The notes beneath the pieces were generated by a model, which was given only the letters and a program-made list of their open reading frames with translations, ran no database searches and was not told the origin of the DNA. The position numbers and the translations under genes are program-made. Of a stretch of 64,000 nt of DNA, positions 13,132 to 13,176 are shown in pieces. This DNA comes from an uncultured Pelagibacteraceae bacterium (GTDB lineage: Bacteria > Pseudomonadota > Alphaproteobacteria > Pelagibacterales > Pelagibacteraceae). The stretch covers positions 1 through 64,000 of the forward strand of contig CACLBB010000007.1 of NCBI GenBank assembly GCA_902605035.1, read 5' to 3'. Each line of letters begins with the position of its first letter. The stretch's first letter is position 1.

Positions 13132-13162
13132 TTGACTTTACAGTTTAGAATAATTATAAACT
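13132..13162 (+). promoter_or_regulatory. katG promoter with overlapping ICE/Fur-like palindrome
   Basis: TTGACT (13132-13137), 17-base spacer, TATAAA (13155-13160): near-consensus sigma-70 promoter with a predicted start around 13167, ten bases before the katG ATG. A 21-base palindrome (13142-13162; core TTTAGAATAATTATAAA, one mismatched pair plus the centre base) covers the spacer and -10. Its shape resembles the iron control element (TTTAGAA...TTCTAAA-type) bound by Irr; irr is the gene just upstream. Binding would block the promoter, so a repressor role is the natural reading (inference). Confidence 0.65.
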
Positions 13163-13176
13163 AATTATTCGATAGT

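What the first reader, a model, noticed from the sequence alone, without database searches (positions are those of the whole stretch)
13132..13176. Near-perfect Irr/Fur-like operator over a consensus katG promoter next to irr
TTGACT-N17-TATAAA is one of the best sigma-70 matches in the window, and a 21-base palindrome covers its spacer and -10. The core TTTAGAATAATTATAAA resembles the iron control element. irr is the adjacent gene. This predicts that peroxide defence is tied to haem/iron status by direct Irr repression.
Basis: partly seen in the sequence, partly recalled or inferred. Interest (0 to 1): 0.55.

Follow-up and report, generated by a model that had tools for sequence, protein, structure and literature searches.

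The report
Swappable peroxidase slot under Irr
A conserved DNA switch for the regulator Irr sits on the promoter of a catalase gene in an ocean SAR11 bacterium, and across its relatives the same switch and regulator are paired with one of three unrelated hydrogen-peroxide-destroying enzymes, which suggests that this 'iron' regulator mainly handles peroxide here.

Summary
The site is real: TTGACT-N17-TATAAA with the palindrome AGTTTAGAATAATTATAAACT over spacer and -10, between irr and katG. Alone it is no rarer than chance; comparison makes the case. In 49 of 50 irr-katG loci read in the family (SAR11, Pelagibacteraceae) the box is kept to within one mismatch. In 18 readable relatives with katG but no detected irr it is absent in 17 and decayed in one, where irr is missing between fabA and katG. 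Outside the family, 50 of 68 irr loci read are followed by rubrerythrin (rbr), with an iron control element in the gap in 35. So SAR11 katG occupies the ancestral irr-rbr slot. Of 216 family genomes with irr (297 searched), 167 have katG, 47 rbr, none both, 2 neither; in 5 of 80 named loci a peroxiredoxin holds the slot. A box model finds its best site at the irr locus in 16 of 16 irr genomes. Direct Irr repression of katG is thus well supported. The haem/iron input is not: nearly all occupants share peroxide, not iron, and the five PerR metal ligands are kept. Most likely Irr here is a local, peroxide-releasable repressor. No binding was tested.

The parts
13142..13162 (+). Irr operator: 21-bp palindrome AGTTTAGAATAATTATAAACT; core TTTAGAATAATTATAAA at 13144-13160
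   Evidence: conserved beside irr, absent in 17 of 18 katG loci without it, same place as the ICE between irr and rubrerythrin
13132..13137 (+). -35 hexamer TTGACT of the katG promoter
   Evidence: TTGACT at the 17-nt spacing in 17 of 30 same-genus loci, other hexamers in the rest; no transcript data
13155..13160 (+). -10 hexamer TATAAA, formed by the right half of the operator
12711..13121 (+). irr, Fur-family regulator of the Irr/IrrA type, 136 aa
   Evidence: (IrrA 149.1 bits against cut-off 150; Irr 136.1 against 170; PerRB 67.7 against 250)
13177..15348 (+). katG, catalase-peroxidase, 723 aa
   Evidence: PRK15061 1021.9 bits, cut-off 981; TIGR00198 1008.6, cut-off 770
15349..15591 (+). 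DUF2061 small membrane protein starting at the base after the katG stop; probably co-transcribed (inferred)
   Evidence: homologue downstream of katG in 29 of 30 same-genus loci, in 11 of them about 600 bp further on; the 30th locus is cut short
12126..12629 (-). fabA, divergent neighbour of irr (synteny anchor; not shown to be regulated)

Best explanation
The palindrome is the operator of Irr, the product of the adjacent gene. Irr bound there covers the spacer and -10 of the katG promoter and blocks RNA polymerase. The site is the SAR11 form of the iron control element that lies between irr and rubrerythrin in many alphaproteobacteria; in SAR11 the slot behind that operator holds katG, or rubrerythrin, or a peroxiredoxin, and the right half-site TTCTAAA has become TTATAAA, which contains the -10 box. 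Irr here acts as a local repressor of one hydrogen-peroxide scavenger and, in many relatives but not in the window's own subclade, of itself. Most likely H2O2 releases it, by a PerR-like attack on its metal site or by oxidative loss of the protein, rather than haem alone. Shown: the site, its conservation, its co-occurrence with irr, the slot swaps, the conserved ligands. Inferred: binding, repression, and the signal.
For: Box within 1 mismatch in 49 of 50 irr-katG loci read (30 of 30 same-genus including the own; 19 of 20 divergent; the sample holds 167 irr+katG genomes). Box absent (4-7 mismatches) in 17 of 18 readable katG loci of genomes without strong irr hit (19 of 41 such genomes fetched, one cut short) and decayed (2 mismatches) in the 18th, where irr is missing between fabA and katG. 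Three of those 18 (G009, G022, G040, complete genomes) carry a high-scoring Fur-family gene read as classical Fur, so Fur is an unlikely binder. Family: irr+ 216 = katG 167 + rbr 47 + neither 2; katG and rbr together 0 against 33 expected (not corrected for kinship); 40 of the 42 genomes with neither katG nor rbr lack strong irr. Rubrerythrin in the slot with like boxes, often an opposed pair, and a box before irr; redoxin-family peroxiredoxin in the slot in 5 of 80 named SAR11 loci, box at 0, 0, 1, 1 and 3 mismatches. Class: irr followed by rbr in 50 of 68 loci outside the family; ICE at 2 mismatches or fewer in 35 of those 50 gaps and shuffle p at most 0.01 in 40 of 50; where neither rbr nor katG follows, 0 of 17 and 1 of 17. 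Box model: best hit at the irr locus in 16 of 16 irr+ genomes; 3 of 4 complete irr- genomes without any hit at E 0.1, the fourth with one inside an ORF; katG the only strong hit in this genome. The five PerR regulatory ligands are kept in 73 of 73 family Irr, and in 68 of 68 others except D85 in 67. Published: B. japonicum Irr is degraded on H2O2 (PMC4902296, passage); Irr-bound mbfA of R. sphaeroides rises about 9-fold with H2O2 (PMC3413700); rbr of Ca. P. ubique rises 1.57-fold on iron limitation (PMC2864753, passage), opposite to classic Irr repression.
Against: No binding, transcript or expression data for this organism. One katG promoter beside irr (G223, L098) has lost the box while its irr promoter keeps an exact one. 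One irr+ genome read (G266, L118) has boxes but a hydroxylase-like gene, not a peroxidase, in the slot; the other irr+ genome with neither enzyme (G096) was not read. One rbr locus (L127) has no box at 3 mismatches or fewer in the gap. The window's own subclade has lost the box upstream of irr. In 15 of 50 irr-rbr gaps outside the family no ICE at 2 mismatches or fewer was found. The PerR ligands are shared by the Irr sampled class-wide, including the kind described as haem-sensing, so they do not prove peroxide sensing; Irr mechanisms described so far are haem-based (PMC7762939, passages). That the Ca. P. ubique rbr lies behind this operator is inferred; its locus was not seen, and 1.57-fold is small.
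Confidence: 0.62

Rival explanations
1. Classical Irr: apo-Irr represses katG when haem/iron is scarce, to spare haem, and haem relieves it. Same operator, different signal.
For: The protein is an Irr by family score and keeps the HxH motif; characterised Irr proteins sense haem (PMC7762939, passages); KatG and rubrerythrin both consume iron; the one hydroxylase-like occupant (Asp_Arg_Hydrox, L118) may also be an iron enzyme (recalled for that family).
Against: A redoxin-family peroxiredoxin, which needs no iron, holds the slot with the box in 5 named loci; no second strong box in this genome, hence none at haem or iron genes in the 90% assembled; irr is kept almost only where katG or rbr is kept; rbr rises on iron limitation in Ca. 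P. ubique (PMC2864753); no haem regulatory motif.
Confidence: 0.25
2. Another Fur-family protein (Fur or Zur) binds the palindrome and irr is only a neighbour.
For: The core also fits a PerR-type box; most complete relatives searched carry further Fur-family genes.
Against: Three complete katG+ genomes with a Fur but no strong irr lack the box; the strong boxes sit at the irr locus; the same arrangement with an ICE recurs class-wide next to irr.
Confidence: 0.07
3. The conservation reflects only a strong promoter, not an operator.
For: TATAAA and a -35-like hexamer are inside or beside it.
Against: TTTAGAA lies in the spacer, outside the two hexamers, and is invariant in 30 of 30 while the -35 varies; in many rbr loci a second copy lies upstream in the opposite orientation; 17 of 18 katG promoters of genomes without strong irr lack it.
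Confidence: 0.04

Closest known systems
Iron control element (ICE) of Irr, Rhizobiales/Rhodobacterales
   Same: Left half TTTAGAA identical (consensus recalled); 17-bp frame; position over the promoter fits repression; next to irr; ICE found between irr and rbr in the class
   Different: Right half is TTATAAA instead of TTCTAAA and contains the -10; target is a catalase-peroxidase gene; strong sites only at the irr locus
PerR-peroxidase and FurA-katG modules (Bacillus PerR, mycobacterial FurA; recalled)
   Same: Fur-family gene beside the peroxide scavenger it would control; all five PerR regulatory ligands kept; box before its own gene in many relatives
   Different: Irr lineage, no CxxC zinc site in any of 141 Irr sampled, as in Leptospira PerRA (PMC8638967, passage; 5nl9)
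R. sphaeroides Irr and katE (PMC3413700; abstract, passages and section 8 seen)
   Same: irr deletion raises a catalase gene about 6-fold and H2O2 resistance; Irr directly binds peroxide-related mbfA and ccpA
   Different: There Irr does not bind katE and the authors call a direct effect unlikely; here the operator is on the katG promoter

Membership tests
Irr (NCBIfam IrrA / Irr) | score over the curated cut-off | tested here: inconclusive
   IrrA 149.1 bits, cut-off 150; Irr 136.1, cut-off 170; next family PerRB 67.7, cut-off 250
Irr (NCBIfam IrrA / Irr) | HxH/HHH motif, no structural CxxC | tested here: met
   SHHHFYDE in the sequence; the histidines aligned to PerR H91 and H93 kept in 73 of 73 family Irr; CxxC in 0 of 73 family and 0 of 68 other Irr
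Irr (NCBIfam IrrA / Irr) | haem regulatory motif (GCP...) of B. japonicum type | tested here: not met
   0 of 141 Irr in the sample; not a defining feature of all Irr (absent in R. sphaeroides Irr, PMC3413700)
Irr (NCBIfam IrrA / Irr) | synteny fabB-fabA / irr / following gene as in other alphaproteobacteria | tested here: met
   fabA-fabB divergent from irr in the window, in 80 of 80 named SAR11 loci for fabA and in part of the class loci
ICE operator | TTTAGAAN3TTCTAAA at a promoter | tested here: met
   13 of 14 fixed bases; consensus recalled, not read in a paper here
ICE operator | bound by Irr | not testable with these tools
   needs gel shift or footprint
PerR | five-ligand Fe/Mn regulatory site with Asp at the D104 position | tested here: met
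   H37, D85, H91, H93, D104 (numbering recalled) aligned and kept
PerR | Cys4 structural zinc site | tested here: not met
   no CxxC; Leptospira PerRA and PerRB also lack it (PMC8638967, passage)
PerR | H2O2 releases DNA binding | not testable with these tools
   biochemistry needed

The most novel reading that the evidence does not exclude
In SAR11, Irr has stopped being a global iron/haem regulator and become a one-locus peroxide switch: irr is kept almost only with one peroxide scavenger, and the gene behind its operator is exchangeable between haem catalase, iron rubrerythrin and thiol peroxiredoxin.
Probability: 0.55. Interest if true: 0.72.

Novelty: new variant of a known kind. Interest (0 to 1): 0.6.

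Why it matters
[quoted passage not shown] abstract start and passages seen). The slot described here shows that katG and rubrerythrin are alternatives behind one regulator and one operator, so that habitat difference may be read as a swap of a regulated module. It also offers a natural test of what Irr senses: like operators drive enzymes with haem, with non-haem iron and without metal.

Tried and rejected
Motif statistics in the window or genome alone: no excess. ICE at up to 1 mismatch in the genome: five places, four inside ORFs, only katG intergenic. Further targets in this genome by the box model: 21 hits at E up to 10, two of them the katG site on either strand; of the other 19, 12 were read, 11 inside ORFs and 1 (L138) intergenic between unrelated genes. 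In 20 relatives six off-locus hits appeared at E up to 0.1; four were read, three inside ORFs and one (L352, E 0.08) in no ORF of 90 aa or more; two were not read. 'G000 has no Fur, so Irr is the only candidate' was dropped: in relatives whose two genes share a contig fur lies 15-17 kb upstream of irr, and contig C7 starts 12.7 kb before irr, so it is probably an assembly gap. HTCC1062 was not among the 80 loci kept, so its rbr datum stays an inference. Rodionov et al. 2006 (the computational Irr regulon) is not held, so an earlier prediction of irr-rbr or irr-katG sites cannot be excluded. No structure was predicted: the tool gives no ligand distances. Rows left out: L081 (contig ends at the gene) from the no-irr control; L048-L073 mostly duplicates of loci already held, left out and, except L049 and L057, of the tree; 57 of 109 different site 25-mers left out of the box model by my choice, so the model leans to good sites. 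L116 is labelled 'other' in the tree because my stretch ends inside its katG.

The confidence of the best explanation, which covers operator and signal together, is lowered from 0.8 to 0.62: beside the rivals the first figure summed over 1, and the L118 exception had been left out. The operator part alone I hold at about 0.88.

Full report
What is there. Between irr (12711-13121) and katG (13177-15348) lies a 55-bp gap with TTGACT-N17-TATAAA and the palindrome AGTTTAGAATAATTATAAACT over spacer and -10. The regulator scores best as IrrA/Irr, just under the curated IrrA cut-off (149.1 against 150) and far above any PerR model. The core is one mismatch from the ICE and also one mismatch from a PerR box (both consensus strings recalled), and on its own it is no rarer than chance at 30% GC.

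Conservation. The family is Pelagibacteraceae, SAR11: the 80 named irr loci kept by a search with family members all carry Pelagibacteraceae or Pelagibacterales titles, and contig lengths tie several of them to family handles, e.g. L223 to G166. katG is present in 208 of 297 family genomes. In the 30 best-matching katG loci (own genome and 29 of the same genus), irr lies before katG with fabA-fabB divergent (my ORF filter missed irr in some, tblastn found it in all 30). The box TTTAGAAN2ATTATAAACT is exact in 27 and has one mismatch in 3 of 30, while -35, spacer start and leader vary. Of 20 more divergent irr-katG loci, 19 keep it to within one mismatch; one (L098, G223) has lost it.

Control without irr. 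41 of 297 genomes have katG but no strong irr hit (strong means E below 1e-30; some are drafts where irr may simply be unassembled). I took 19 of the 41; one contig ended at the gene. In 17 of 18 the best match upstream of katG has 4-7 mismatches (same strand, 150 bp). In the 18th (L093, G265) irr is missing between fabA and katG, and a two-mismatch relic of the box remains. Three of the 18 (G009, G022, G040) are complete genomes with a high-scoring Fur-family gene that I read as classical Fur. So the box follows irr rather than fur or katG.

The slot. Of 20 irr+ katG- loci read, 19 have rubrerythrin behind irr, followed by a cysteine-rich protein (CCG domain in the one tested, L074); the 20th, L118, has an Asp_Arg_Hydrox family gene. 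Boxes like that of katG, often as an opposed pair, lie in the rbr gap, and another lies upstream of irr in most (L127 has none at 3 mismatches or fewer in the gap). In the family sample irr+ genomes are 167 with katG, 47 with rbr, 0 with both, 2 with neither; rbr was never found without strong irr; 40 of the 42 genomes lacking both enzymes also lack strong irr (cut-offs as; not corrected for kinship). In 80 named loci, chosen by similarity to rbr-type irr and therefore biased, 68 have rbr, 7 katG and 5 a redoxin-family peroxiredoxin (Pfam, all five). The best box in those five gaps has 0, 0, 1, 1 and 3 mismatches. In G121, G042 and G029 a redoxin-family gene follows fabA directly, and irr and any box at 3 mismatches or fewer in that gap are missing. 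On an Irr tree of 141 rows (few columns, bootstrap not settled, 54 of 138 inner branches open) the katG label needs 8 changes, at least 6 on well-supported branches, against 43 for shuffled labels (one row, L116, is mislabelled). The slot content has thus switched repeatedly.

Origin. Irr was found in 150 of 241 genomes of the class. I read 69 loci: the 29 best-scoring apart from the own, one of which (L154) belongs to the family, and 40 picked by me down the list. Of the 68 outside the family, 50 have rubrerythrin next downstream of irr; 35 of those 50 gaps hold an ICE with at most 2 mismatches, and in 40 of 50 at most 1% of 200 mononucleotide shuffles did as well, in loci of up to 69% GC. 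Where neither rbr nor katG follows, 0 of 17 reach 2 mismatches and 1 of 17 (L208) reaches p 0.01. One locus outside the family, L207, has irr-katG with two ICE-like sites around its promoter, perhaps an independent swap. The SAR11 katG operator is thus best read as the ICE of an ancestral irr-rbr module, with TTCTAAA changed to TTATAAA so that it contains the -10.

Regulon. A 25-position sequence model from 52 chosen sites gives one strong hit in this genome, at katG (E 6.8e-5; next 0.087, inside an ORF). In 16 irr+ relatives the best hit is at the irr locus each time (E at most 7e-4); of four complete irr- genomes three have no hit at E 0.1 and one has 0.008, inside an ORF. This is the profile of a local regulator, not of a global iron regulon. 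Limits: the search scored only the 150 best candidates of each genome, the model was built partly from these same loci, and weak sites would be missed.

Signal. The protein keeps H37, D85, H91, H93 and D104 of B. subtilis PerR (numbering recalled; alignment), as do all 73 family members examined and the 68 others apart from D85 in one; CxxC is absent from all 141. A published comparison notes the same Asp and the missing CxxC in Irr (PMC8638967, passages). B. japonicum Irr is degraded on H2O2 (PMC4902296, passages). R. sphaeroides mbfA, an Irr target, rises about 9-fold with H2O2, and the irr mutant has about 6-fold more katE mRNA, but Irr does not bind katE (PMC3413700, abstract, passages and section 8). 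In Ca. P. ubique rbr rises 1.57-fold under iron limitation (PMC2864753, passages), against the classic expectation. With the thiol peroxidase in the slot this favours peroxide over haem, but it does not prove it.

Known or new. Irr, ICE and Irr-linked oxidative stress are known. Direct Irr control of a catalase-peroxidase, the exchangeable slot and the loss of irr with its enzyme did not show up in the listings of searches of the held library, nor in the passages read. Rodionov 2006 could not be read, and subscription journals are mostly missing.

Noticed in passing
window 15349-15591: DUF2061 membrane protein begins at the base after the katG stop; a homologue lies downstream of katG in 29 of 30 same-genus loci, in 11 of them about 600 bp further on.
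   Followed up: partly
window 12655-12700: The window's subclade lacks the box upstream of irr that most other SAR11 irr loci read have; the own sequence shows TGTACA...TTGTAC instead, and relatives show what look like decayed boxes.
   Followed up: partly
L093 1411-1560: irr is missing between fabA and katG in G265, with a decayed operator: a natural irr loss.
   Followed up: yes
L303, L304, L308: Redoxin-family peroxiredoxin directly after fabA, with irr and box missing.
   Followed up: partly
L118 714-1322 (minus strand): An Asp_Arg_Hydrox family gene holds the slot behind irr in G266, with boxes present: a possible fourth occupant that is no peroxidase.
   Followed up: partly
L207 (reverse complement 1411-3380): irr-katG with two ICE-like sites in a genome outside SAR11.
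   Followed up: partly
window start (contig C7 base 1): fur lies 15-17 kb upstream of irr in several relatives; this contig begins 12.7 kb before irr, so fur is probably missing from the assembly only.
   Followed up: partly
L205, downstream of irr: A bacterioferritin-like ORF follows irr in a genome outside the family (reading by eye).
   Followed up: no
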